Positions 2,772 to 45,438 of a stretch of 53,904 bases of DNA are shown in pieces (within the stretch, counting starts at the first letter, position 1; each line of letters opens with the position of its first letter). The stretch covers positions 1-53,904 of the forward strand of contig JAJZFS010000059.1 of the NCBI GenBank assembly GCA_021805245.1, written 5' to 3'. The DNA is from Pseudomonadota bacterium (GTDB taxonomy: Bacteria > Pseudomonadota > Alphaproteobacteria > Micavibrionales > UBA2020). The notes below the pieces were generated by a model. The model had not been told where the DNA came from. It saw nothing but the letters and a program-made list of their open reading frames with translations, and searched no databases. Made by a program: the position numbers and the translations under genes.

Positions 2772-3668
2772 ATGAGCCATGCCAACGAAGCCTTCCGCCT
2801 GACCGCCGCACCGCCGCCCGTCCCGCGCGTGCCGCGGTTCCCCTTGCGGCGGCGCATCTTCAGCATCGCCGGATGGACCACCACTGCGCTCGCGCTCATC
2901 CTGCTGACGGCGGCGATGCTGGGAATTCTGGAGATGGTTTTCGTGCGCGGGATTGGCGCGCTGGTGCCCGCGACCTTCACGACGATCACGCAAGGCACCG
3001 GCGGCGGCCTGCTCAATGCAATCGAAGGAACGTTCGTGCTGTCGTTCGGCGCGCTGCTGCTCGCAGTGCCGTTCGGCATGGCCGCCGGCATCTATATCTC
3101 GGAATACCGGAACGGCTGGTGGGCAAAGACCATTCGCCTCCTCGCCGACGTCCTTGTCGGGGTGCCTTCGATCGTGGTCGGCTATGTCGGCTATGTGACG
3201 ATGGTCGACTGGCTCGGCTGGAACTTCTCGGTGGCCGCGGGGGCGATCAGCCTCGCCGTGATGTCTCTCCCCTATATCTGCCGCACGACGGAAATGGCGC
3301 TGCAGCAGGTGCCGGGCGACCTGCGCGAGGCGGCATTCGCGCTGGGCGCGGGCGAAAGTCAGGTCATTTTCCGCATCTGCCTTCCGGCCGCGTTGCGGGC
3401 GATCCTGACCGGCATTCTCCTCGCGCTGGCCGTGTCCGTCGGCGAAACCGCGCCGCTGCTTTATACCGCCGGATGGTCGAATTATCTATGGGATGGCAAG
3501 ATGACGCACTCTCCCGTCGGCTATCTGACCTACGCCATCTGGACCTTCATCAGCGAACCTTTCGCTTCGGCGCACCAGCTTGCCTATGCCGCGGCATTTC
3601 TCGTGATGGCGCTGGTGCTGCTCGTTCACCTTGCCGCCCGTCTCGTTTTCGATCGCCATCGGCGTTGA
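2772..3668 (+). CDS. pstA: Phosphate ABC transporter permease PstA
   Basis: Second permease of the Pst importer, 298 residues. A proline-rich cytoplasmic start ([16 protein letters not shown]) is followed by a first membrane helix ([20 protein letters not shown]). The family signatures are [24 protein letters not shown] and the EAA coupling motif [21 protein letters not shown], then [17 protein letters not shown]. It pairs with PstC in the membrane and docks on the PstB ATPase. It lies between pstC (11 bases upstream) and pstB (47 bases downstream). Confidence 0.93.
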
Positions 3669-34990: not shown

Positions 34991-37900
34991 CTAATCCTCT
35001 AAGCCATCATCGATCCACGTTGGGGCACCACGTCCAAAGCGTTGAAGATGGACATTCTTGTCTCCTTCCACAAAATGCGCTGAGTAAAAGCTAGGCTGTG
35101 GATTATTGAATATGAGCTTTTTCAACCTGACAAGCCGCTGGTAGTCGGGCGTACATACCCATACCTCACCACTCGGATCGTTGATTTCTATCCTGTAGGG
35201 GCGGCCTGCGGGAGGGCGTGCGGCCTCTGGAGGAAGGTTGAGAAAACGTATAGATTTTTCTACTTCCCAGCGATGTGCGGGCCCGCTTAGAGCCTCGTAG
35301 TGAAACCTTTGCCAGAGGGCGGCTGTTTCTGCCGTAGGCCAATTTCCTGCCTTGGTAAGAGCAACAATCTTTTTACTTTTTAGCCACTCCTGCATCCCGC
35401 TGATGTCTACAAAATTCGCTTCTCCTGTGCGGACGGCGGCCATCGCGGCTCTGCGGGAAGGAAGTCCCGCACGAATAAGCATGGACATCATCATCTGTGG
35501 TACACCCGTTTCAAGAGACCCGGCACCGCCGCCAGCCACAATCTCTGGCGTCCAGCCCTGAGAGACCCGGCGCGTGCGTAATGCTTCCAATGCCCAAACT
35601 AGACGGTAAGAGAATACCTCCTCTACTACGCTCATGTTATCCGGTCCAATGACGTTCACATCTACCCCTGTAATCCATGCCTGTAATATTTCCTCCCAAT
35701 TTCCCGGCAGGGGGTTCTGAGCACTTGGCGCGAAGGGGCGAATAGTAAGGAGGCGACGAGCAAGGCCAATAAGAGCTACAGATAGATTTTCCTCATTTCC
35801 CTGAATGGCTGCGAGGTCGGCTTGGTCCAGTAGTCCAGCAAGCTCATCCGCCATAGCATCTAATGCAAGCCCAGCTTCTAGGCCAACCCCCATCGCATAG
35901 TGGCCCTTGCGAGCAGCAGGCGTCGTGGTATTCCAGATAAGGCGCGCCCGTGCGGCGAGTACAACTCGATGGTTATTTTGGGTTCCTTCTTTTTCGCGAG
36001 CAATCTGCCGCTGCCAGAGTGATCCTCGGAGAGCTTCGTCAAGGAGGCGTGGAAGGTCTGCACTTTCAGCATCAAATGCCTCTATTAACCCCAAAACGGT
36101 TGCATCCAGCTTCTCAACCAGATGATCTAGGGGCTCTCTGCCATCTTCTTCACCCTCATCATCGTTGCCTGCAACTTCCGTCCACCCTTCACGCGAGTTC
36201 ATGAGGTACTCGACAGCATCTTCACGTTCAAGAGTGCCATTATCGGCAAGACGCTGGATTATCTCGTTAATAATTTGAAAGAGACCACTTTGCAGAGTTC
36301 GGGATTTTGCAGAGGCGACAAGCTCCTTCCATTGATTTAAACGATATGCATGTTTATCAAAAATAACGTGAAGTATGAGTCCCTCAACGTCTACAAAAGC
36401 ACGCCCGGCACGACCTGCCACATTGGCAAATTCTTCTCCGGTGATGAGAGCACCAGACCTGACAAGATATGGAACCAATAGTACCGCCGCATTAATATTC
36501 AATCCTTGCGATAAAGTCGGAGAGGCAGCAATTACTTTGAGAGTGCCGTTGGACAAGAGTAATTCCAGTTCACGCAGAAAAGGTTTTGGCAGACCGCCGT
36601 GGTGGATGGCTAAACCGATCTTTAATGACTCCACTGCGGGATGGCCGTCTCCCAGCCACTCCCGGCCAACTTCGAGCGCCCGTTGTATAGTGGCGGGATT
36701 TTCTAGGAGAGACGGCAAATAGCCGCGATTGACCAGATCAAGAGCTACCTCCCCAAACCCCTCAACCCAATTCGCTTGAGTGATAAATATCAGCGTTCTC
36801 TTGCCCTGCTCAGCAAACTTCCACGCGGCAAAAAGGGAAAGGTCCTTTGCATCTCTGGGAAGAGACTTTTTTTGTCGCCCGCGCGCCGGAACTTCCTCGA
36901 CAAATTTTGCCAAGAAGGGGCCATCATTTTCTAGGTCGAATTTGAGTTTTGCGCTTGGGGCATGCCATGTCAGTGTACCGAAACGCTGGCGAGTTGGACG
37001 CCACGAAGATTTCACTGGCCCGCCTTCCACATCATGCCGAATCCACGCGGTCAAATCGTTTAGCTGCTCGCCATCCGGCAAAATCGCCGATAAGCAGACG
37101 ATACGGCGCTCTGCTGCATCCGGACGCAAAAGTAGTTTCTGAACAAGGATTTCGTAGCGAATTTCCCTCTCCGTCGGGCCGATCATATGCCCCTCGTCGA
37201 GGACGATAAGGCCCACATCGTCAATCAGGCTCGGATCGCTGCGCAATGCAAAATCAAGTTTCTCCGGCGTGGATATAATAATATCCTTTGACCGAAGGGC
37301 GTCTTCATCTCCGGCAGACACACCGCTGGCCCCATAAAGAGAAGAAACCGAAAATCCAAGCGGCGCAAAGGTTTTCCGAAAAGAACGTTCCGTCTGTGCA
37401 GAGAGCGCGCGTAGTGGCGTGACAATTAGTACCCGTTTTTGGGTAGATAATGTCATCAACGCCGCAATCTCGGCGACACGTGTTTTACCCGCGCTTGTCG
37501 GCAAGGCAACCACCATATCGTCAGTCACGTTACCGGCGCGGCGTGCAGCCTCAACCTGTGAGGGCCAAAGTTCGACTTCCGCAGTTTTTCTTGCATAGAG
37601 CGACACGAGAAAAAGCTCGCGTGCGTTTGTATAATTTGCCCCTCCTCCCGCAGGCGGTGTCTTCGGCAAATTTACATGCAGAGAGTCTTCCCAGAGATCA
37701 GTAATCAGGCTGAGGCATAAGCGCAGAAGCCACCACATGGTGATAACACTTGCGTCGCCAGCAAGTTTTACTCCGTCTTTAAAAATATTCTTGGCAGTTA
37801 CTACCAGGGCGTCATCGCCCGTTTGTAAGGCAAAATCAAAATAAGAGAGACCCCGGCAAACTGTAGAGTTGAGAATGATTGAGATTGCATCCTCTTCGTC

Positions 37901-38443
37901 TATAGCGTTTCCTTTCAAAGCAGCGGCAAGGGACTCGTCACTGTTCATGTCATTTTGAAGCCATGAGCTAGTGAAATCGCGCAGCCCTCCTAGATCGCGA
38001 AGAACGAGAAAAGTCAGCGCCTGCTCTGCGGGAGAAATATTTTCTCCATTTTCCCGCTGGTGAAAAATAGAATATGCGATAGCGGAATATCCAGCGAGGT
38101 GATAGGCCGTGCCCGCGATAGCGCGGTAGAAGCCGCGTTCAGGATGATCTGGAGCTTCATTGCGGACAAGGGCCTCAAAGGCTTTTGCCGCGTGTTCAAA
38201 GCCCTTTTGGCTAATGTCCGCCGATCCTGCCGCTTCTTTCAGTGCAAGCGCCGCACGCAGGATGGAGAAACCATAGTCCGCAAGATCGGTGTCGATGGAT
38301 GCCCCAAAGGGCGGAGCGTCTTGTGGTAAGGCACCTTCCTGCCGCATAAGAGACCATGCAGCGCCACGGTCCAGTAGCCGCCCACGGAAATCCTTTCTCG
38401 TTCGCAACGAGATAAATCGCTCAAGCTGCTCAGTCGTCTCCAA
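34991..38443 (-). CDS. hamB: HamB-like superfamily 2 helicase (Hachiman type)
   Basis: 1150 residues. A helical N-terminal region of about 290 residues precedes a Ski2-like helicase core: Q-like motif WPSQVEAA, Walker A ALPTSAGKT (to about 321), motif Ia VTPLRALSAQ, DEAH-type box LIVLDEGHM (about 416-419), then CLSAIL, TLIFITQANWVEGF, and motifs V/VI in ASPTLSQGLNINA and EFANVAGRAGRAFVD. The long C-terminal part (about 700-1150) has no motif I can name. It overlaps the HamA-like gene by 14 bases. Size, fold and partner match the Hachiman anti-phage system, in which HamB is the DNA-sensing helicase of a HamAB complex. Phage defence here is inferred from the family. Confidence 0.82.
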   Translation of the reverse strand: METTEQLERFISLRTRKDFRGRLLDRGAAWSLMRQEGALPQDAPPFGASIDTDLADYGFSILRAALALKEAAGSADISQKGFEHAAKAFEALVRNEAPDHPERGFYRAIAGTAYHLAGYSAIAYSIFHQRENGENISPAEQALTFLVLRDLGGLRDFTSSWLQNDMNSDESLAAALKGNAIDEEDAISIILNSTVCRGLSYFDFALQTGDDALVVTAKNIFKDGVKLAGDASVITMWWLLRLCLSLITDLWEDSLHVNLPKTPPAGGGANYTNARELFLVSLYARKTAEVELWPSQVEAARRAGNVTDDMVVALPTSAGKTRVAEIAALMTLSTQKRVLIVTPLRALSAQTERSFRKTFAPLGFSVSSLYGASGVSAGDEDALRSKDIIISTPEKLDFALRSDPSLIDDVGLIVLDEGHMIGPTEREIRYEILVQKLLLRPDAAERRIVCLSAILPDGEQLNDLTAWIRHDVEGGPVKSSWRPTRQRFGTLTWHAPSAKLKFDLENDGPFLAKFVEEVPARGRQKKSLPRDAKDLSLFAAWKFAEQGKRTLIFITQANWVEGFGEVALDLVNRGYLPSLLENPATIQRALEVGREWLGDGHPAVESLKIGLAIHHGGLPKPFLRELELLLSNGTLKVIAASPTLSQGLNINAAVLLVPYLVRSGALITGEEFANVAGRAGRAFVDVEGLILHVIFDKHAYRLNQWKELVASAKSRTLQSGLFQIINEIIQRLADNGTLEREDAVEYLMNSREGWTEVAGNDDEGEEDGREPLDHLVEKLDATVLGLIEAFDAESADLPRLLDEALRGSLWQRQIAREKEGTQNNHRVVLAARARLIWNTTTPAARKGHYAMGVGLEAGLALDAMADELAGLLDQADLAAIQGNEENLSVALIGLARRLLTIRPFAPSAQNPLPGNWEEILQAWITGVDVNVIGPDNMSVVEEVFSYRLVWALEALRTRRVSQGWTPEIVAGGGAGSLETGVPQMMMSMLIRAGLPSRRAAMAAVRTGEANFVDISGMQEWLKSKKIVALTKAGNWPTAETAALWQRFHYEALSGPAHRWEVEKSIRFLNLPPEAARPPAGRPYRIEINDPSGEVWVCTPDYQRLVRLKKLIFNNPQPSFYSAHFVEGDKNVHLQRFGRGAPTWIDDGLED

Positions 38444-39206
38444 GATTTTCGGCCTCCTCGTAGACGTCCGCTATGAAATCCGCATGATCCGCGATGTGTA
38501 TGTTAATAACTTCATGCGCGCGCGCATCATCGGCATCGGCGAGATCATCTTCGATAGCCTCAGGCGGCGCATTACCAGACAAGCTAAAAAACGCATGGGC
38601 TATACGATCCGCTGGAACTGCTTTATTGGCGACTTCATCACGGAGCTTTTTCCCCAATACCTCGTCCGCGCCACCGCGTTCAAGAAGTCGGTCAGCGACG
38701 AATAACAGAGAGCTTGGTGTAGGGCGTCCGCTGTCACGGTTAAGAGCCTTTCTTGCTTTCTTCACCGTTGCCTCACTGAGGTTTTTGCGACTTTTCGACT
38801 CTCCCTTCAACAGGCATAGGTTTTCATCATCATCTTGAGTAACGCCGATAAAATCATCGCCTCGAAGAGCCATCTCTCTCCCGTCCTTATAACGTAAGCG
38901 ACGGATAGGGACCTGAAATTCCAGATGGCGCTCTGTAAATTCTGTTGCAAGTATTTCTCCGAGATCACCTGACCGCGCTCTTTTTGTTCGTGGGAGGCGC
39001 TCGCGCAAGATGGCAGCCGCGCCGCCGTATCCGAGGCGCTCTACATCTTCGGCAATTCGGGTTAGGCAATCATAGTGCGAGCGCACGACTTCATGCAGGG
39101 TATCTTTAATCTGCTCTCGCCCATCTTCCTTCTCGGTCAGCTTCCATAACCTTTTACGGTTATCTTCCTCTTCGGAGAAGTCGCACCAATCTGTAAACAA
39201 AGTCAT
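38430..39206 (-). CDS. hamA: HamA-like nuclease (DUF1837, Hachiman type)
   Basis: 258 residues. The core reads SGDLGEILATEFTERHLEFQVPIRRLRYKDGREMALRGDDFIGV, then NLCLLKGESKSRKNL. The residues Glu84, Asp118/Asp119 and Glu136-x-Lys138 fit a PD-(D/E)xK nuclease arrangement, as known for HamA (DUF1837). No membrane or signal segment is present. In Hachiman the nuclease is held by HamB and released to degrade DNA when the helicase meets damaged or phage DNA. It is coupled on both sides: the start overlaps the RT stop by 4 bases and the end overlaps hamB by 14. Assignment rests on motif and helicase partner, not on a database search. Confidence 0.75.
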   Translation of the reverse strand: MTLFTDWCDFSEEEDNRKRLWKLTEKEDGREQIKDTLHEVVRSHYDCLTRIAEDVERLGYGGAAAILRERLPRTKRARSGDLGEILATEFTERHLEFQVPIRRLRYKDGREMALRGDDFIGVTQDDDENLCLLKGESKSRKNLSEATVKKARKALNRDSGRPTPSSLLFVADRLLERGGADEVLGKKLRDEVANKAVPADRIAHAFFSLSGNAPPEAIEDDLADADDARAHEVINIHIADHADFIADVYEEAENLGDD

Positions 39207-40606
39207 TTTCGTTCTCTAAATAAATTTTGATTCATGGACTGCTTTGGCGGAACCGCTGCCTTCTTTTTCGGGACCAGGCTGACGCTTGGGTATTTGAAGG
39301 GGGTGCGGGGTATTTTTTTTAACTGGGACACGCCGAGAAGCTCCCCATGATGCTCGGCATTGACCGCTTCACGAACCGTTTTGTAGGCTCCCAGGTAATC
39401 GCGCACGTACTCCGATACTTTTTGATCCAGGTGGCCGAGCGTGAGGCCGTCGTTGCAAAACCAATAATGCTTTGCCCAGCCATCCACGGTTCCATCGATA
39501 CGCTTGAGCGTCCCAAGGAGGCTACCAGTCCTCGATACGGCCTGCCCGTTCTTTCTTCCTATGAGGGCCTGCTTTCCTTCACGGAAGGTGTTCTCTATCT
39601 TCTCCAAAAACCGCTCTTTGGACTTATCCGAGGGCCGGATGATGCCAGGAGAGATGTGGATGCCAAGGAAATCAAAACCGTCATCGATAGACTGGCCGCC
39701 CTTTGAGCTCTTGGCCTTGGACAATTCCATCTCAAGGGCTTTCAAAAGCTCGATAGATTTTTTCAGGCGCGCGTCGGCGGCTTTCTGGGTGGGTGCGATG
39801 ATGATGAAGTCATCGATGTACCGGATACAGCGGCAGTCGCCTTCGTTCATCTTCTTGTCGAAATCGGCAAGGATGATATTGCCGAGGAGCGGGGAAAGGG
39901 AGTTGCCTTGAGCTACTCCCAAATCCTCCGTTGGAAAATCATCCGCATATTGTTTTATTTGCTCGATGTTTGACAACTCTACATCAATCGCCTGTCCAAG
40001 AAAGTCCATGAACTCCTGGTCCTTCACCACGTCCCCAATGATCGCGGTGACTGTTGACTTCCGGATGCGGGTGAAGAAGGAGCTTATGTCGGCGCAGGCG
40101 ACATGGCGGCCCCCTTGATCGATGGCTGTGAGAACCGCTTGAATGGCAGCAGGAACCGCAGAGATACTTTTTGAACGCTCTGTCCGCGAAGCGGGAGACT
40201 GAGGCCGATCGCTTCTGATGCCCCCGAAGCTGAACTCGGTTTTGCTATAGGGTTTAAGTCCTTCTATATCCAGCAGGACGTTCAGTAACGCTCGTTGGAC
40301 AATCCGGCTTTCTACCGGAGCAAGAACGATTGGCCTGATTTTCTGTCTGCCGCCGTCTTTGGGAGGCTTATCTTTCGGAATAGGCACACCGGCTGCCGGT
40401 GGAAATTTGAAGGTTTTGCGGGCGAGCTTGTTTTGAAGCGAGCGTAGGCGCTTCTGCGCATCGATCGCAAAGTCTTCAAGCTCAAGCCTTACTTTATCGG
40501 ATTTGGACGATCGCCCGTTTTCTTGGATCGTCTGCCACGCAGACTCCAGGTTCCGAATGGTGCGGAGTTTTTCGAGATGAGTCTTTTTCTTTTTAATCTT
40601 AGACAT
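39203..40606 (-). CDS. Reverse transcriptase, stand-alone, class undetermined
   Basis: 467 residues. RT motifs in order: PIPKDKPPKDGGRQKIRPIVLAPVESRIVQRALLNVL (RT1-2), Asp173 in CADISSFFTRI (motif A), VAQGNSLSPLLGNIILADFD (motif B, residues 231-250), YIDDF at 263-267 (catalytic YxDD) and FDFLGIHISPG (motif D/E region). Motif B is QGxxxSP, unlike the SQ of diversity-generating retroelement RTs. I see no retron VTG motif and no group II intron maturase or endonuclease domain after the thumb. It therefore looks like one of the unknown-group or defence-related RTs. The first gene of the RT-hamA-hamB operon, with a 4-base ATGA overlap to hamA. Its ribosome site is weak. Confidence 0.85.
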   Translation of the reverse strand: MSKIKKKKTHLEKLRTIRNLESAWQTIQENGRSSKSDKVRLELEDFAIDAQKRLRSLQNKLARKTFKFPPAAGVPIPKDKPPKDGGRQKIRPIVLAPVESRIVQRALLNVLLDIEGLKPYSKTEFSFGGIRSDRPQSPASRTERSKSISAVPAAIQAVLTAIDQGGRHVACADISSFFTRIRKSTVTAIIGDVVKDQEFMDFLGQAIDVELSNIEQIKQYADDFPTEDLGVAQGNSLSPLLGNIILADFDKKMNEGDCRCIRYIDDFIIIAPTQKAADARLKKSIELLKALEMELSKAKSSKGGQSIDDGFDFLGIHISPGIIRPSDKSKERFLEKIENTFREGKQALIGRKNGQAVSRTGSLLGTLKRIDGTVDGWAKHYWFCNDGLTLGHLDQKVSEYVRDYLGAYKTVREAVNAEHHGELLGVSQLKKIPRTPFKYPSVSLVPKKKAAVPPKQSMNQNLFRERK

Positions 40607-40650
40607 AGTCTGGTGGGTCCTATCAGTTCACCTTACCCGTTCGACGCAGG

Positions 40651-40775
40651 ACTGAACACCGCAGCGGTTCCTTTCGGCCCGTGCCGCGCAATCAAGGTCC
40701 CGGCTTTCACCGTCGCCTCGCCGTAGTAGGTTAACTGTGGCCCGACGGGGTTGCCGCCTGCCAAGCTGCCTAATA
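40651..40775. repeat. 125-bp direct repeat, copy 1
   Basis: Identical base for base to 41024-41148, same orientation, separated by 248 bases. It starts 45 bases upstream of the RT start codon. On the minus strand it can be read through in two frames, and it forms the end of a 72-codon open frame (40633-40851), but there is no good coding evidence. Together with copy 2 it fills much of the RT leader. Confidence 0.9.
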
Positions 40776-40825
40776 TAGTCAGTTGGATCAGAAGTATTAG
40801 GTAAACTAATGCCCCTAGATCGCGC

Positions 40826-40847
40826 CGTGCCGAGTTGGCACGTTTTT
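40826..40847 (+). terminator. Intrinsic terminator between the two 125-bp repeats
   Basis: CGTGCC-GAGTT-GGCACG (40826-40842) is a perfect 6-bp hairpin followed directly by TTTTT (40843-40847) on the plus strand. It would stop a plus-strand transcript running away from the RT gene through copy 1, so a short RNA antisense to the RT leader is possible. Confidence 0.55.
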
Positions 40848-41023
40848 GCATGTGTGGCCCATCATACTCTCCTTAAATAGCCTAGCGTTTTTAAGCACTT
40901 AGTAAAGGAAAATCGTGAAGCGCCGCCTGCCTGCCTGGCCGTGCAACAAAAGCTAGTAGCCGTCTGATAGGAGCCCTTAACGGTAAAGGTTGCGGCTAAC
41001 GTAAGTTTCGCGAACAGGTAGGT

Positions 41024-41148
41024 ACTGAACACCGCAGCGGTTCCTTTCGGCCCGTGCCGCGCAATCAAGGTCCCGGCTTTCACCGTCGCCTCGCCGTAGT
41101 AGGTTAACTGTGGCCCGACGGGGTTGCCGCCTGCCAAGCTGCCTAATA
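41024..41148. repeat. 125-bp direct repeat, copy 2
   Basis: Perfect copy of 40651-40775. Sequences differ immediately outside on both sides (CAGG versus AGGT on the left, TAGT versus GAGG on the right), so the repeat edges are sharp. The absence of any difference implies recent duplication or copying. There are no A-specific changes between the copies. Confidence 0.9.
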
Positions 41149-41280
41149 GAGGTCATAATTGGTATTTTAGGACGATTCTGGATTTGGTCAAGCAAGAAGA
41201 GATGCTATTGGACTGAGTGTGCCGCCTGCACTTGAACCTGATAAAACCTCACTTTAAAAGGGCCTCCAGAAAAAGGTCTC

Positions 41281-41608
41281 GCCCATTTTATAGAAATGCT
41301 CGTCTTGCACTCCAGTGCAGGAGGAGCCATACTCGCTTTGTGCGCTGCGCAGGTGTTCTGCGCGGGGCCGGGGCGTAGAAACCCTTTGAGTTAGCGGCTG
41401 GCATCAGCCGTGATTGGTGCCGTTCCTTTGAAAGCGAGCACCAAGGATGCCGCTTCTCGGTTTTATGACCGGGGAGTGGCGGTGGAGTCGTGCTTGCATG
41501 GCTCTGGATGTCCAATGGCTTCGGTCTAAAGACCGTCACGCCGTTGCTAACTCAACGGTTTCTAATCTCCGGTCGCCCACGAGACACCTCGTCGGGCGGC
41601 TTTTTTTT
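41281..41608 (+). ncRNA. Candidate structured RNA or leader ending in a terminator
   Basis: No convincing gene is found here, but hairpins follow one another on the plus strand: TGCAC-TCCA-GTGCA (41306-41319), GCGCAG-GTGTT-CTGCGC (41347-41363), GGCTG-GCAT-CAGCC (41396-41409), TTGGTGC...GCACCAA (41414-41444), CGGTC-TAAA-GACCG (41522-41535), CCGTTG-CTAACT-CAACGG (41541-41558). A strong terminator comes last: CGCCCACGAG-ACAC-CTCGT-C-GGGCG (41574-41598) with eight Ts. The ribosome site of the next gene begins two bases after the T-run. This may be a small RNA, or a leader controlling the lipoprotein operon by termination. No known RNA family was recognised, and the minus-strand reading cannot be excluded. 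Confidence 0.45.
41574..41608 (+). terminator. Strong intrinsic terminator just before a lipoprotein gene
   Basis: A ten-pair stem (five plus five, one bulged C) with loop ACAC is followed by GGC then TTTTTTTT. GGAGG of the next gene lies at 41610-41614 and its ATG at 41620, so any transcript of that gene from upstream must read through this terminator. Confidence 0.8.
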
Positions 41609-41619
41609 CGGAGGAAACC

Positions 41620-42791: not shown

Positions 42792-43019
42792 TTAGAGAGT
42801 AGTTGTGGGTAGGGCAGCATTAGCTGCATCGTCGCGTGCGGCAACCTTTCCTGCGACCCAGGCATCGATCTCAGCTTTTATCCAAGCCACCTTGCGCTGG
42901 CCCACATGGACAGCTTTGGGAAATTGAGCTTTCTTGATATAGCCGTATATGCTGCTGCGGCTAAAGCTCGTGATTTCTATGACTTCTCTCAGGCTGAGAA
43001 GACGATCGTTAGTGTCCAT
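42792..43019 (-). CDS. AlpA-family helix-turn-helix regulator
   Basis: 75 residues. The sequence DRLLSLREVIEITSFSRSSIYGYIKKAQFPKAVHVGQRKVAWIKAEIDAWV is the standard AlpA/phage excisionase-like winged HTH (MerR-like fold). Members activate or assist excision of P4-type elements. The start at 43019 follows GGAGG (43027-43031 on the plus strand as CCTCC); the longer frame from 43091 runs through the operator. A perfect 11-bp inverted repeat overlaps its ribosome site (43029-43056), suggesting self-control. It lies between the unknown gene at 43121 and the hairpin-rich stretch. Confidence 0.85.
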   Translation of the reverse strand: MDTNDRLLSLREVIEITSFSRSSIYGYIKKAQFPKAVHVGQRKVAWIKAEIDAWVAGKVAARDDAANAALPTTTL

Positions 43020-43028
43020 GATGAACCT

Positions 43029-43056
43029 CCGTGACGTTATTGGACTAACGTCACGG
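43029..43056. promoter_or_regulatory. Perfect inverted repeat overlapping the AlpA ribosome site
   Basis: Arms CCGTGACGTTA (43029-43039) and TAACGTCACGG (43046-43056) are exact complements separated by TTGGAC. The left arm covers the ribosome binding site of the AlpA gene. Binding of a dimer here, or formation of the hairpin in the mRNA, would block AlpA expression. A self-regulatory operator is the simplest reading. Confidence 0.6.
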
Positions 43057-43088
43057 TAAGAGACAATGCTGGACAGGGCAAAGGAACT

Positions 43089-43119
43089 CACCCCGATAAA
43101 ATAATGTTAATTTGGGGTG
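43089..43119. repeat. CACCCCGATAAAAT motif, copy near the unknown gene
   Basis: CACCCCGATAAAAT (from 43089) is followed by GGGGTG at 43114-43119, making an inverted repeat CACCCC...GGGGTG with a 19-base spacer. The same motif with ATG after it occurs at 45308-45325 next to the attachment site. Shared sites at both ends of the integrase module suggest arm-type integrase or AlpA binding sites. Confidence 0.5.
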
Positions 43120-43120
43120 A

Positions 43121-43963
43121 TTATTCAGCGTTCATGATCTGTTGCGCGGCTTCACAGGCGTTATATATATTCTTCTTTGTAAAAACTTGTACTTCCGAGC
43201 CCGGTTCAAAATCTTCCTTTTCTGTCCAAGAAAGTATTTTCTCGACAAATCTATGGCCGGGAGTGATAGCAACAGGCTCTCCGTTCTGCGATTGATCGAA
43301 GTGCCGTTCGACAGTAAATTTCTTTTTTGACAGTGCTTCGTATGCGCGCGCGATCTCGGCCACATACTCGTTCAGAAGACGGTGTGATGGACGTCCACGC
43401 CCCTGCGCGTGTTCTTCCTCAATGGAAATACATAGTGCTTGGAGATTGGCCACGGCCCTGATAGTGCTGAGATAGCTCTTCCTGTAAGGGTAAGTGGGAT
43501 CATCATAGTGGTCAGGTTCGGAGTAATTCTCAAAAAATGATTTAATGGATTCCTTCCCTAGAGTTTTCTGGAGTTCCAGTGCCGCGTCCGATACCGAGCC
43601 AATCTCCTCAAGAAATTCCTTTCTCTTTGTTTTCGAGAGTTTCTTGCGCCTTAATTCGAGCGCCGCATACATTCGTTCAAAGCTCTTCGGCTCGCGTGAG
43701 ATTCTGACGTTACGCATAGCTTTATTTATGTATTCCACCTTCTCCGCCATGGCGAGTTCGCCCGGCGTATAGGGTAGCATGGCCGCTATTGTCTCTGGAC
43801 CGGCAGCTTCTGGCTTGTTCGCCGCAAGTCCCATTAACAAATACCTCAGCTTGATCTTGGTCCATTTTGGATTGGACACATTTAATTCTTCGATAAGTGT
43901 CTCAAGAAAGGCATCATCCTCGGCGGAAAGAGGAATGAGCTTGAGGCGCGACTTGGATGGCAT
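43121..43963 (-). CDS. Hypothetical island protein next to integrase
   Basis: 280 residues, soluble and mostly helical by composition (RKKLSKTKRKEFLEEIGSVSDAALELQKTLGKESIKSFFENY; LNEYVAEIARAYEALSKKKF). The start region SRLKLIPLSAEDDAFLETLIEELNVSNPKWTKIKLRYLLMGLAANKPE has no motif I recognise. It begins two bases after the integrase stop, on the same strand, so it is almost certainly co-transcribed with the integrase. It may take part in recombination or element control, but this is only positional inference. Its stop falls next to the CACCCC...GGGGTG repeat. Confidence 0.65.
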   Translation of the reverse strand: MPSKSRLKLIPLSAEDDAFLETLIEELNVSNPKWTKIKLRYLLMGLAANKPEAAGPETIAAMLPYTPGELAMAEKVEYINKAMRNVRISREPKSFERMYAALELRRKKLSKTKRKEFLEEIGSVSDAALELQKTLGKESIKSFFENYSEPDHYDDPTYPYRKSYLSTIRAVANLQALCISIEEEHAQGRGRPSHRLLNEYVAEIARAYEALSKKKFTVERHFDQSQNGEPVAITPGHRFVEKILSWTEKEDFEPGSEVQVFTKKNIYNACEAAQQIMNAE

Positions 43964-43965
43964 GT

Positions 43966-45195
43966 TTATCCTGCAACCTTCTGAACGGCGTCGGCATGAA
44001 AGGGGATAATTTCAGCGCCATCGTTCATTCTGAATTTGTCCAAGATGTCGGCATAGTCCTGCATCATCTTTTTACGCTCAAGGAGATACTCTGCACGATT
44101 ATAGGCGGATCGGACTTTATCCTCATCCTCATGCGCGAGCTGGCGCTCAATAACGTCTGGCTTATAGCCTTTTTCGTTCAGAATGGTGCTGGCAAGCGTC
44201 CGAAAGCCGTGACCTGTCATGCGGTTCTTATATCCCATGCGGCGCAGCGCCATTAACACCGTGCCATTGCTGATATGCTTGGACTTGCTGGCCCCGCTGA
44301 AAAATAGAAATGGTCTTGCTCCAGTTATTTTCTGTAGCAGTCTCAAAACGTCCAGAGTTTGACGGGCAAGAGGGACAATATGAGGGCGCTTCATCTTCAT
44401 CCGTTCTGCGGGAATATGCCACTCAGCTCTGTCCCAGTTAATTTCTTCCCACTTTGCGCCGATCAGTTCGCCTGTGCGAACGAAAGTCAGGGAAAGCATC
44501 TGCATAGCGATTTTGCCGAGATCATTGTCCCTGGCTGTAATTTTTTGCAGAAGAGTCGGTATTTCTTCCATGGGAAGGCAGGCATGATGTTTCTTCTTGG
44601 ACGTTGGAAGGATGTCTCTCAGGTCAGCCGCAGGGTTATGCTCGCAGAGGCCGCGCTGCGCGGCATAGCGGAAGACTTGGCTGATATACTGCTTCATGCG
44701 CTTGGCTGTGACGATAGTGCCTTTCTCGCCGATCTTTTCGATGACCTTGACCACGTCGGGAATAATGATTTCCTTGATCGGCAAAGAGCCAATCATAGGG
44801 AAAACATGCTGTTCCATGCGGGTTAAGATTTGGTCGTGGTATTTGCCGTTTAATTTGCTTTCTCTGAGGTCATGCCAGCGGCGGGCAATACTCTCGAAGG
44901 TATTCTCAGCCTCGCTCATGCGGCGCAGCTTCTGGGCCTGCCTGACGCGGCGAGGATGGTGCCCAGCGTCGACCTGCTCTCTGGCTTCATCACGTAGTTT
45001 TCGAGCTTGGGCGAGACTAATGGCGGGGTATTTGCCCAAGGCGAGGGTTTGCGCCTTGCCGTTGTAGCGATATCGCCAGCGCCAGAGTTTGCCTCCGGCA
45101 GGGCTAATTACGATGCTGAGGTTGCCGCTATCCACGATTCTATAAGGAATGGTCTTGGGTTTAGCGTTCTTTATTTGCAGTTCGGTGAGAGGCAT
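43966..45195 (-). CDS. Tyrosine integrase of the P4/DUF4102 type
   Basis: 409 residues from the ATG at 45195 (the frame extends to 45273, but MPLTELQIKNAKP is the family start). The N-terminal arm-binding DUF4102 domain (LSIVISPAGGKLWRWRYRYNGKAQTLALGKYPAISLAQARKLRDEA) and the core-binding SAM-like domain precede the catalytic domain. The catalytic set is visible: Arg in TFVRTGELIGAKW, HGFR in MTGHGFRTLAST, His in RQLAHEDED, and the nucleophilic Tyr in VRSAYNRAEYL. It lies 153 bases from the 3' end of tRNA-Ser, the usual target arrangement. The last part of an operon leading into the gene at 43121. Confidence 0.93.
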   Translation of the reverse strand: MPLTELQIKNAKPKTIPYRIVDSGNLSIVISPAGGKLWRWRYRYNGKAQTLALGKYPAISLAQARKLRDEAREQVDAGHHPRRVRQAQKLRRMSEAENTFESIARRWHDLRESKLNGKYHDQILTRMEQHVFPMIGSLPIKEIIIPDVVKVIEKIGEKGTIVTAKRMKQYISQVFRYAAQRGLCEHNPAADLRDILPTSKKKHHACLPMEEIPTLLQKITARDNDLGKIAMQMLSLTFVRTGELIGAKWEEINWDRAEWHIPAERMKMKRPHIVPLARQTLDVLRLLQKITGARPFLFFSGASKSKHISNGTVLMALRRMGYKNRMTGHGFRTLASTILNEKGYKPDVIERQLAHEDEDKVRSAYNRAEYLLERKKMMQDYADILDKFRMNDGAEIIPFHADAVQKVAG

Positions 45196-45291
45196 GACGG
45201 GGGCTCCGAGGATAAATATATACACAAATCTACACCCACCCTTTCTGGCTGGTGTTGAATCTCTCTGGAGCATGTTGGATTAAAACGCAAG

Positions 45292-45325
45292 TTTTATTGG
45301 GGTTTTTCACCCCGATAAAATCATG
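45292..45325. repeat. Inverted repeat with CACCCCGATAAAAT motif between integrase and tRNA
   Basis: TTTTAT-T-GGGGT (45292-45303) pairs with ACCCC-G-ATAAAA (45309-45320) around a 5-base centre. The right arm continues as CACCCCGATAAAATCATG, matching 43089-43106 at 17 of 18 positions. Three half-sites of the same motif thus lie around the integrase module; they are likely integrase or AlpA binding sites near the attachment point. Confidence 0.5.
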
Positions 45326-45346
45326 CTGGATTTCGTTGGATTATAT

Positions 45347-45363
45347 AATGGCGGACAGGGAGG
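45347..45363. repeat. Candidate right attachment site (tRNA-Ser 3' end)
   Basis: AATGGCGGACAGGGAGG includes the complement of the tRNA 3' acceptor strand and CCA. It matches 34848-34863 with one base deleted at the left end. Integrase-proximal, as expected for islands that rebuild the tRNA on integration. Confidence 0.5.
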
Positions 45364-45438
45364 GATTCGAACCCTCGATAGGCTTACACCTATACTAGTT
45401 TTCGAGACTAGCGCCTTCAACCACTCGGCCACCTGTCC
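45349..45438 (-). tRNA. tRNA-Ser (anticodon CGA)
   Basis: Read on the minus strand, the 90-base sequence begins GGACAGGTGGCCGAGTGG and ends GGTTCGAATCCCTCCC then TGTCCGCCA, with CCA encoded. The acceptor stem GGACAGG/CCTGTCC pairs fully. The anticodon arm is CTAGT-CTCGAAA-ACTAG, giving anticodon CGA (reads UCG). The long variable arm (TATAGGTGTAAGCCTAT) is the class II feature of serine tRNAs. Its 3' end is the insertion point of the island. Confidence 0.97.

What the first reader, a model, noticed from the sequence alone, without database searches (positions are those of the whole stretch)
40607..41160. Two perfect 125-bp repeats in the leader of the reverse transcriptase
Copies at 40651-40775 and 41024-41148 are identical, in the same orientation, 248 bases apart, with sharp edges. 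Repeats close to an RT call to mind template/product pairs: DGR template and variable repeats, retron msd, or the DRT non-coding RNA that is copied to cDNA. The spacer holds a plus-strand terminator. Identity over 125 bases in an otherwise unconstrained leader implies recent copying or strong conservation, possibly by the RT itself.
Basis: partly seen in the sequence, partly recalled or inferred. Interest (0 to 1): 0.7.

Follow-up and report, generated by a model that had tools for sequence, protein, structure and literature searches.

The report
Repeat-flanked hidden gene beside reverse transcriptase
Upstream of a bacterial reverse transcriptase thought to repair DNA lies a conserved cassette whose two identical repeats appear to let one hidden, split gene be stitched together, probably by copying RNA back into DNA.

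Summary
The repeats are real: 125/125 identical, 248 bp apart. They belong to a family. Of 20 loci with related RTs, 16 have an intact RT and enough upstream DNA. 15 of these carry two direct copies (117-138 bp, 96.9-100% identical in each locus, offset 346-382), although R diverges strongly between loci. The 16th (L034) has lost exactly the spacer and one copy. The RT is a G2L4 (group II intron-like 4) RT, a family published as domesticated for double-strand break repair; the passages I read describe no such element. In the repeat-joined unit, an ORF begins with a hydrophobic segment in the 3' spacer, crosses R and continues into the 5' spacer. That frame stays open at least 44 codons past R1 in 15/15 loci. 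The chromosome holds these pieces permuted. Sequences just after R1 and just after R2 are complementary in every locus, with clade-specific sequences. My reading: R1-spacer-R2 RNA is a template, and the strand-annealing RT uses R1/R2 to make concatemers (or circles) that assemble a small membrane or secreted protein gene. This resembles DRT2/neo but uses long repeats and a stop-terminated gene. Joining and function are inferred, not shown. DGR and retron readings are rejected.

The parts
41024..41148 (-). R1, upstream repeat copy (5' end of the leader transcript)
   Evidence: 125/125 identical to R2
40651..40775 (-). R2, RT-proximal repeat copy
40776..41023 (-). Spacer between the copies (248 nt); 5' part encodes the putative C-terminal part, 3' part the putative promoter P2 and the hydrophobic N-terminal part
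40636..40851 (-). Open frame MQKRAN...PASNG (72 codons, stop follows): N-terminal hydrophobic segment plus R2, truncated just after R2
   Evidence: KD19 2.25 in this frame, -0.84 and -0.41 in the others
40865..41149 (-). Open frame R1 plus 5' spacer (95 codons, stop 40862-40864): putative C-terminal part of the joined 120-codon ORF; no linked start with a Shine-Dalgarno-like site found
41164..41191 (-). P1, sigma70-like promoter TTGACC-N16-TAAAAT; predicted start about 8 nt before R1
40879..40906 (-). P2, promoter-like TTTACT-N16-TAGGCT with an A5 tract; not significant on its own in the window (p 0.23) but its position recurs in other loci
40860..40874 (-). Shine-Dalgarno-like AAGGAG and ATG ATG; the second ATG is in the +1-offset frame that reads TGC AAA AAC
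   Evidence: read from the sequence
41011..41020 (-). x, TACCTGTTCG, 4-13 nt after R1
   Evidence: 10 contiguous pairs with x'
40634..40643 (-). x', CGAACGGGTA, 8-17 nt after R2
40826..40847 (+). Hairpin followed by T5: terminator-like on the plus strand, antisense to the RT
   Evidence: on the other strand it is AAAAAC plus hairpin
39203..40606 (-). G2L4-family reverse transcriptase, 467 aa, motif YIDD
38430..39206 (-). HamA (Hachiman); neighbour, overlaps the RT stop by 4 nt; not part of the conserved unit
34991..38443 (-). HamB (Hachiman helicase); neighbour, not part of the conserved unit

Best explanation
The leader is a template-and-hidden-gene cassette of a G2L4 reverse transcriptase. 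Order on the RT-sense strand: P1 - R1 - x - [C-terminal coding part] - P2 / ribosome site - [hydrophobic N-terminal part] - R2 - x' - RT. Shown by sequence: the repeat pair, its conservation and homogenisation, the x:x' complementarity, and an open frame that is continuous only if the 3' spacer is joined through R to the 5' spacer. Inferred: an RNA starting at or near R1 folds by x:x'. The RT copies R2, then the spacer, then R1. Because R1 equals R2, the nascent cDNA re-anneals to R2 (the G2L4 enzyme is a published strand-annealer) and copying continues, giving (R-spacer)n DNA or a circle. After second-strand synthesis, each unit is a complete gene with its own promoter P2, encoding a ~110-140 aa protein with an N-terminal hydrophobic segment. 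The protein is probably a membrane or secreted effector of phage defence or of a mobile element. The chromosome itself encodes only a truncated peptide, so the full protein appears only when the RT is active. This works like DRT2/neo and, in its A-B-A' template logic, like DRT10 and telomerase.
For: (a) 15 of 16 testable loci have the pair. Identity within loci is 96.9-100%. Between loci the nearest R is 61-87% identical, except the two P. aeruginosa alleles at 100%. (b) Taking the frame from the N-terminal/R2 side, it is open >=44 codons past R1 in 14/14 loci (medians 54.5, against 6.5 and 10.5 in the other frames) and is the longest of three frames in 13/14; hold-out L035: 49 against 7 and 6. 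The hydrophobic segment lies in that frame in 14/14 (KD19 1.43-2.55; other-frame medians -0.27 and -0.24). (c) x:x' helix of 9-13 contiguous pairs in 14/14; own score 27.9, cross-clade 16.9; 0 of 20000 permutations reach the sum. (d) The RT is G2L4: hmmsearch E 7.6e-121, VIA Z 38.8. Strong strand annealing and snap-back synthesis are published for the family (PMC12337344, passages). (e) The unit is constrained beyond the RT: L008/L013 RT 78.3% nt identity, dS 1.46; R 0/132 and spacer 9/244 differences. (f) In the R part of clade B, dN/dS is 0.28-0.57 in six pairs. (g) P2-like TTGACN-N15/16-TANNNT or near match with an A5 tract in 12 of 14. (h) No start linked to a Shine-Dalgarno-like site for the R1 half near R1 in 15/15 (one at -247, L024).
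Against: No RNA, cDNA or protein data. One testable locus (L034) keeps an intact RT with a single R. dN/dS of the joined ORF is about 1 in clade A (win-L003 1.13) and in the P. aeruginosa pair (1.29), and 0.94 in clade C, so protein selection is not shown everywhere. Clade A and clade B products are not detectably homologous (hhalign E 0.73; A against P. aeruginosa 5.7e-6). AlphaFold of the R1 half is uninformative (pLDDT 41.5). In several clades the Shine-Dalgarno ATG is in another frame (AAA AAC offset). P1 is individually significant only in win, L003 and L030. P2 is absent or poor in L007 and L010. A duplex-energy version of the x:x' test was not significant in most loci. RecA-type gene conversion could explain the identity without the RT.
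Confidence: 0.5

Rival explanations
1. DNA-level joining. R1 and R2 recombine in DNA (RecA, or the RT's own annealing/MMEJ activity), excising a ~350-380 bp circle that carries the joined gene; the RT acts on DNA, in line with its published repair role, and not on an RNA template.
For: L034 is exactly the chromosomal product of an R1xR2 deletion. G2L4 RT performs MMEJ and strand annealing (PMC12337344, PMC13015716, passages). The joined ORF would be made just as well.
Against: The x:x' helix, conserved by covariation just outside the repeats, makes sense for a single strand. P1 sites cluster so that the predicted start is within -19 to +8 of R1, as for a run-off template end. A simple excision would destroy the donor.
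Confidence: 0.2
2. Regulatory leader. R copies and x:x' form alternative RNA structures that control expression of the RT; repeat identity is passive gene conversion and the joined ORF is incidental.
For: Strong nucleotide-level constraint on the unit; dN/dS near 1 in clades A, C and P. aeruginosa; promoter-like P2 lies upstream of the RT.
Against: The joined frame is open past R1 in 15/15 loci while the other frames are mostly closed, with a hydrophobic segment in the same frame; R part dN/dS 0.28-0.57 in clade B. A switch does not need 117-138 nt of identity.
Confidence: 0.2
3. Known retroelement: DGR template/variable repeats, retron msr-msd, or a CRISPR-like repeat.
For: RT next to repeats; x:x' recalls the retron a1/a2 inverted repeats (recalled).
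Against: Copies identical, no adenine-directed changes, both in the leader; contrast with the DGR L033. No retron RT or Rfam match above cut-off. The RT is G2L4.
Confidence: 0.03
4. Recent tandem duplication or assembly artefact without function.
For: Perfect identity and sharp edges in the window taken alone.
Against: 15 of 16 testable loci have an independent pair at near-constant spacing.
Confidence: 0.02

Closest known systems
G2L4 (group II intron-like 4) reverse transcriptases, e.g. P. aeruginosa G2L4 RT (PDB 9d5x, 9d4s; PMC12337344)
   Same: RT sequence and fold (E 7.6e-121, Z 38.8); YIDD active site in 15 of 16 RTs inspected
   Different: The literature passages read describe a free-standing repair enzyme and no upstream repeat pair or hidden ORF. 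The 2022 Cell paper was not held, so I could not check it, nor whether the crystallised enzyme's own locus has the cassette
DRT2 / neo (PMC11100668, PMC12039810; abstracts and passages)
   Same: Leader next to the RT in which concatenation across a junction creates a gene that the chromosome does not hold in order
   Different: DRT2 jumps at short ACA motifs, unit about 120 nt, length divisible by 3, no stop, gene antisense to the ncRNA, promoter formed at the junction. Here: 117-138 nt repeats, unit 346-382 nt, usually not divisible by 3 with a stop, gene sense to the RT, promoter P2 intact within the unit. RT below the Drt2 cut-off (44.2 against 390 bits)
DRT10 / UG17 (PMC12632851; passages)
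   Same: Best-scoring named UG profile for these RTs (106-122 bits); template with a repeated alignment segment (A-B-A')
   Different: DRT10 has a 137-nt ncRNA, short repeat units and a SLATT partner; none was seen in the window
LTR retroelement R regions (recalled)
   Same: Direct repeats at the ends of a template allow strand transfer
   Different: RT lies outside the repeats; no integrase or mobility of the unit seen
Hachiman (HamAB)
   Same: HamA and HamB are encoded just downstream in the window
   Different: Not conserved with the RT (0 of 19 other loci in the DNA held)

Membership tests
G2L4 reverse transcriptase | Sequence and fold of G2L4 RT | tested here: met
   9-row profile against PDB: 9d5x 7.6e-121, next family 6e-37; VIA Z 38.8 over 399 residues, next non-G2L4 row Z 27.8
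G2L4 reverse transcriptase | YIDD instead of YADD | tested here: met
   Window RYIDDF; 15 of 16 RTs of loci with testable leaders; L010 has YVDD (its pattern matched another motif in win and L035, whose YIDD is read); L036 also YVDD
G2L4 reverse transcriptase | RT3a plug insertion with two arginines before AQG | tested here: inconclusive
   A segment of similar length precedes AQG, but a clear RR pair at that place is seen only in L008; positions compared by eye
G2L4 reverse transcriptase | Double-strand break repair by MMEJ | not testable with these tools
   -
DRT2 | Drt2 RT equivalog score | tested here: not met
   44.2 bits, cut-off 390
DRT2 | Concatemer unit divisible by 3 and without stop | tested here: not met
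   Window unit 373; of 14 units only L003 and L004 are divisible by 3 and only L004 lacks a stop
DRT2 | ncRNA-templated concatemeric cDNA | not testable with these tools
   Needs RNA and cDNA sequencing
DRT10 (UG17) | SLATT partner gene | tested here: not met
   Window neighbours of the RT are HamA/HamB and, on the other side, small ORFs without a Pfam match; other loci not scanned for SLATT
DGR | Template and variable repeat differing at template adenines | tested here: not met
   R copies identical or nearly so, 0-4 mismatches per locus
Retron | Retron RT class / known retron RNA | tested here: not met
   retron_St85_RT 39.9 bits, cut-off 235; no Rfam retron match; other retron classes not separately tested
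Hachiman | HamA and HamB | tested here: met
   PADLOC HamA 1.9e-100, HamB E 0

The most novel reading that the evidence does not exclude
G2L4 reverse transcriptases, now read as domesticated DNA-repair enzymes, are gene-assembly machines. They turn a permuted, repeat-flanked chromosomal cassette into a complete gene by R-to-R strand transfer on an RNA template. The small membrane protein made this way is the effector, and the annealing/MMEJ activity measured in vitro is the side of this reaction seen without its natural template.
Probability: 0.42. Interest if true: 0.95.

Novelty: new variant of a known kind. Interest (0 to 1): 0.85.

Why it matters
DRT2 showed that an RT can write a gene that the genome does not hold in readable order. 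A second, unrelated-looking solution, with long terminal repeats and a stop-terminated gene in another RT family, would make hidden-gene assembly a general strategy. It would also give G2L4 RTs, known from crystal structures and repair assays, a natural substrate, and makes their role directly testable: the template, junctions and product are now named. Gene finders miss such genes because no contiguous ORF exists.

Tried and rejected
DGR reading: rejected, copies identical; a genuine DGR (L033) came up and differs in kind. Known RNA family: nothing above threshold in the leader; isrK at 16.4 bits (cut-off 50) lies at 41540-41606, outside it. Known plasmid or phage homologue of the leader DNA: none. 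RT-hamAB as a conserved unit: no HamA or HamB match in 19 other RT loci (downstream DNA held is short for some). First viral scan with a 3-row RT profile: none. Scan for the conserved motif GCAAAAACGTGCC...: six chance hits without the repeat pair. L014 is a group II intron RT and was dropped from all counts. AlphaFold of the R1 half: pLDDT 41.5, no use.

Duplex-energy test of x:x' (RNAduplex): not significant in most loci, and L010 worse than cross pairs. I then used a contiguous-helix score limited to the flanks, so the second test was chosen after the first; L035, found later, gave 8 contiguous pairs, p 0.05. In one search L007 and L025 each have three cross-clade pairs that do as well.

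RNAalifold on five clade-B leaders gave a structure with R1 largely paired to the 3' spacer and R2 and little covariation (-2.08); not used. Frameshift idea: the Shine-Dalgarno ATG and the hydrophobic frame are offset by -1 at AAA AAC in several clades; the site is not a canonical slippery heptamer (recalled) and the hairpin follows too closely, so it is left open. Clade labels A-E and P are mine, by R/leader similarity, not from a tree.

Rows not counted: L029, L031, L036 (RT at contig edge), L037 (RT lacks its N-terminal part; no leader found). Loci L005, L006, L009, L015, L022, L023, L026, L027 duplicate others.

Full report
OBSERVATION. The two copies are as described: 40651-40775 and 41024-41148, 125/125 identical, same orientation, 248 bp between them. 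Dinucleotide shuffles of the region give a longest exact repeat of 13. Nothing else in the held genome matches. All coordinates below follow the RT-sense (minus) strand, so the copy at 41024-41148 is R1 and the RT-proximal one is R2.

THE RT. The neighbour (39203-40606) matches no named DRT family above cut-off where one is given: RT_UG17 122 bits, UG4 93, NCBIfam Drt2 44 against a cut-off of 390, group II maturase 130 against 300. A profile of nine relatives finds the crystallised G2L4 reverse transcriptase of P. aeruginosa far ahead of all others (9d5x 7.6e-121, 9d4s 5.5e-120, next 6e-37). An AlphaFold model (pLDDT 79.8) gives Foldseek rank 1-4 and VIA Z 38.8 for G2L4, next family 27.8. The family hallmark YIDD is present in the window and in 15 of 16 RTs with a testable leader (L010 has YVDD). 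In the papers read (PMC12337344: abstract, part 1 of 5 of the Results, and passages; PMC13015716 and PMC4244168: passages) G2L4 is a domesticated enzyme for double-strand break repair with strong strand annealing and snap-back synthesis. Passage searches for upstream, repeat, ncRNA, direct repeat, tandem and flanking show no such element. The founding 2022 Cell paper is not held, and the supplement was not read. Other searches that found no print record of this element.

RELATIVES. RT searches gave 20 loci in all, window included: L003, L004; L007 (22); L008 (23); L010-L012 (36); L013 (37); L024, L025 (59); L028-L032 (62); L034-L037 (114). They are rare: for example 2 of 385 genomes of the class at E <= 1e-80, 4 of 398 of the phylum at 1e-70, 6 of 149 of one family at 1e-60; the window genome itself counts in the first two. 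Three (L029, L031, L036) sit at a contig edge and L037's RT lacks its N-terminal part, so 16 can be tested. Fifteen have two direct copies of 117-138 bp, 96.9-100% identical, offset 346-382, and no other repeat of >=80 bp and >=90% in the locus. The sixteenth, L034, has an intact RT, one R (123 of 125 positions of L003's R align at 1330-1452) and then the tail from 1455; spacer and second copy are gone. This is what recombination between R1 and R2 would leave. It shows that the pair can be lost and suggests that something keeps it elsewhere.

CONCERTED EVOLUTION. Within loci 0-4 mismatches; between loci the nearest R is 61-87% identical, except the two P. aeruginosa alleles. Those two are telling: their RT genes are 78.3% identical with dS 1.46, yet R1 and R2 show 0/132 differences and the spacer 9/244. 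L030 and L032 have RT synonymous sites at saturation and R at 87%. The unit is constrained at the nucleotide level and homogenised within the locus.

A SPLIT, PERMUTED FRAME. In the 3' spacer a frame begins, often as ATGCAAAAACGTGCC (MQKRA), encodes a hydrophobic stretch (KD19 1.43-2.55 in this frame; medians -0.27 and -0.24 in the others), and runs into R2. After R2 it closes at a median of 8 codons, though not always (L030 runs on into the RT frame, 459 codons). Because R1 = R2, the same frame exists in R1. Past R1 it is open for at least 44 codons in 14/14 loci (medians 54.5, 6.5 and 10.5 for the three frames) and is the longest frame in 13/14. If frames were exchangeable the last count has a chance of about 6e-6 (my arithmetic; the P. 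aeruginosa pair is not independent). L035, found afterwards, agrees: 49 against 7 and 6. The R1 half has no start with a Shine-Dalgarno-like site near R1 in 15/15. So the full ~110-140 aa protein exists only if the 3' spacer is joined through R to the 5' spacer. In L004 the 375-nt unit has no stop at all.

IS IT PROTEIN-CODING? Supported in clade B: dN/dS of the R part 0.28-0.57 in six pairs; of the C-terminal part 0.55-1.03. Not supported by dN/dS in clade A (win-L003 1.13, win-L004 0.83), P. aeruginosa (1.29) or L024-L025 (0.94). Strong nucleotide constraint lowers synonymous change, so this measure is weak here. Clade A and P. aeruginosa products align over 114 columns (hhalign E 5.7e-6); A and B do not (0.73). 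The product has no confident fold (pLDDT 41.5).

RNA FEATURES. Just after R1 and just after R2 lie complementary stretches x and x': 9-13 contiguous pairs in 14/14, with different sequences in each clade (permutation 0 of 20000). A first test by duplex energy was not significant in most loci, so the contiguous-helix score is a second choice and should be re-tested on new loci; L035 gave 8 pairs, p 0.05. P1: the best sigma70-like site puts the start within -19 to +8 of R1 in 14/14, but only win, L003 and L030 are individually significant (window site also). P2: TTGACN-N15/16-TANNNT or a near match, with an A5 tract, lies before the N-terminal part in 12 of 14, not L007 or L010.

MECHANISM. I take P1 RNA as template: the RT copies R2, spacer, R1, and the nascent strand re-anneals from R1 to R2, so that units join seamlessly. 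This is the logic of DRT2/neo (PMC11100668, PMC12039810; abstracts and passages) and of A-B-A' templates in DRT10 and telomerase (PMC12632851; passages). DNA-level excision (rival 1) predicts the same gene and is favoured by L034; a plain regulatory leader (rival 2) explains the constraint but not the frame. No step from RNA to product has been shown here. A role in phage defence is a guess from context: a HamAB neighbour in the window on an integrase/tRNA-Ser island, relatives on viral contigs, a TIR-domain gene nearby in L008.

VERDICT. Observation confirmed. Interpretation partly right: a template role is the best reading, but it is neither DGR nor retron, and the finding is larger than the repeat: a conserved cassette of G2L4 RTs with a hidden, permuted gene.

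Noticed in passing
window 34991-40606: RT, hamA and hamB overlap head to tail (RT stop and hamA start share 39203-39206), as if one operon; no HamA/HamB match in 19 other RT loci.
   Followed up: partly
window 41370-41612: Plus-strand RNA-like element: 16-nt terminal inverted repeats (41380-41395 / 41546-41561) and a GC hairpin with T8, upstream of a lipoprotein-like ORF. Two other same-genus genomes of the 16 searched match parts of it (79% over 104 nt, 86% over 56 nt); those two had no match to this RT at E <= 1e-20.
   Followed up: partly
window 42792-45438: AlpA-like regulator, an unnamed ORF and a tyrosine integrase next to tRNA-Ser(CGA): the RT-hamAB genes sit on an integrative island.
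   Followed up: no
window 40843-40862: In many loci the Shine-Dalgarno ATG reads TGC/CCG AAA AAC while the hydrophobic frame is at -1, with a hairpin right behind; possible frameshift or nucleic-acid motif.
   Followed up: partly
L034:1300-1500: Natural allele with single R, spacer deleted, RT intact: a ready-made loss-of-cassette comparison.
   Followed up: yes
L008:4723-4917: The truncated peptide (N-terminal part plus R2) is annotated as hypothetical protein WP_124169534.1.
   Followed up: no
L013 and L008: In P. aeruginosa the RT lies near filamentous-phage-like genes (a Zot-like ORF by eye in L013, inovirus Gp2 annotated in L008) and a recombinase.
   Followed up: no
L033:2744-2857 and 3321-3434: A genuine DGR-like pair (85% identical) with a distant RT, met while searching.
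   Followed up: no
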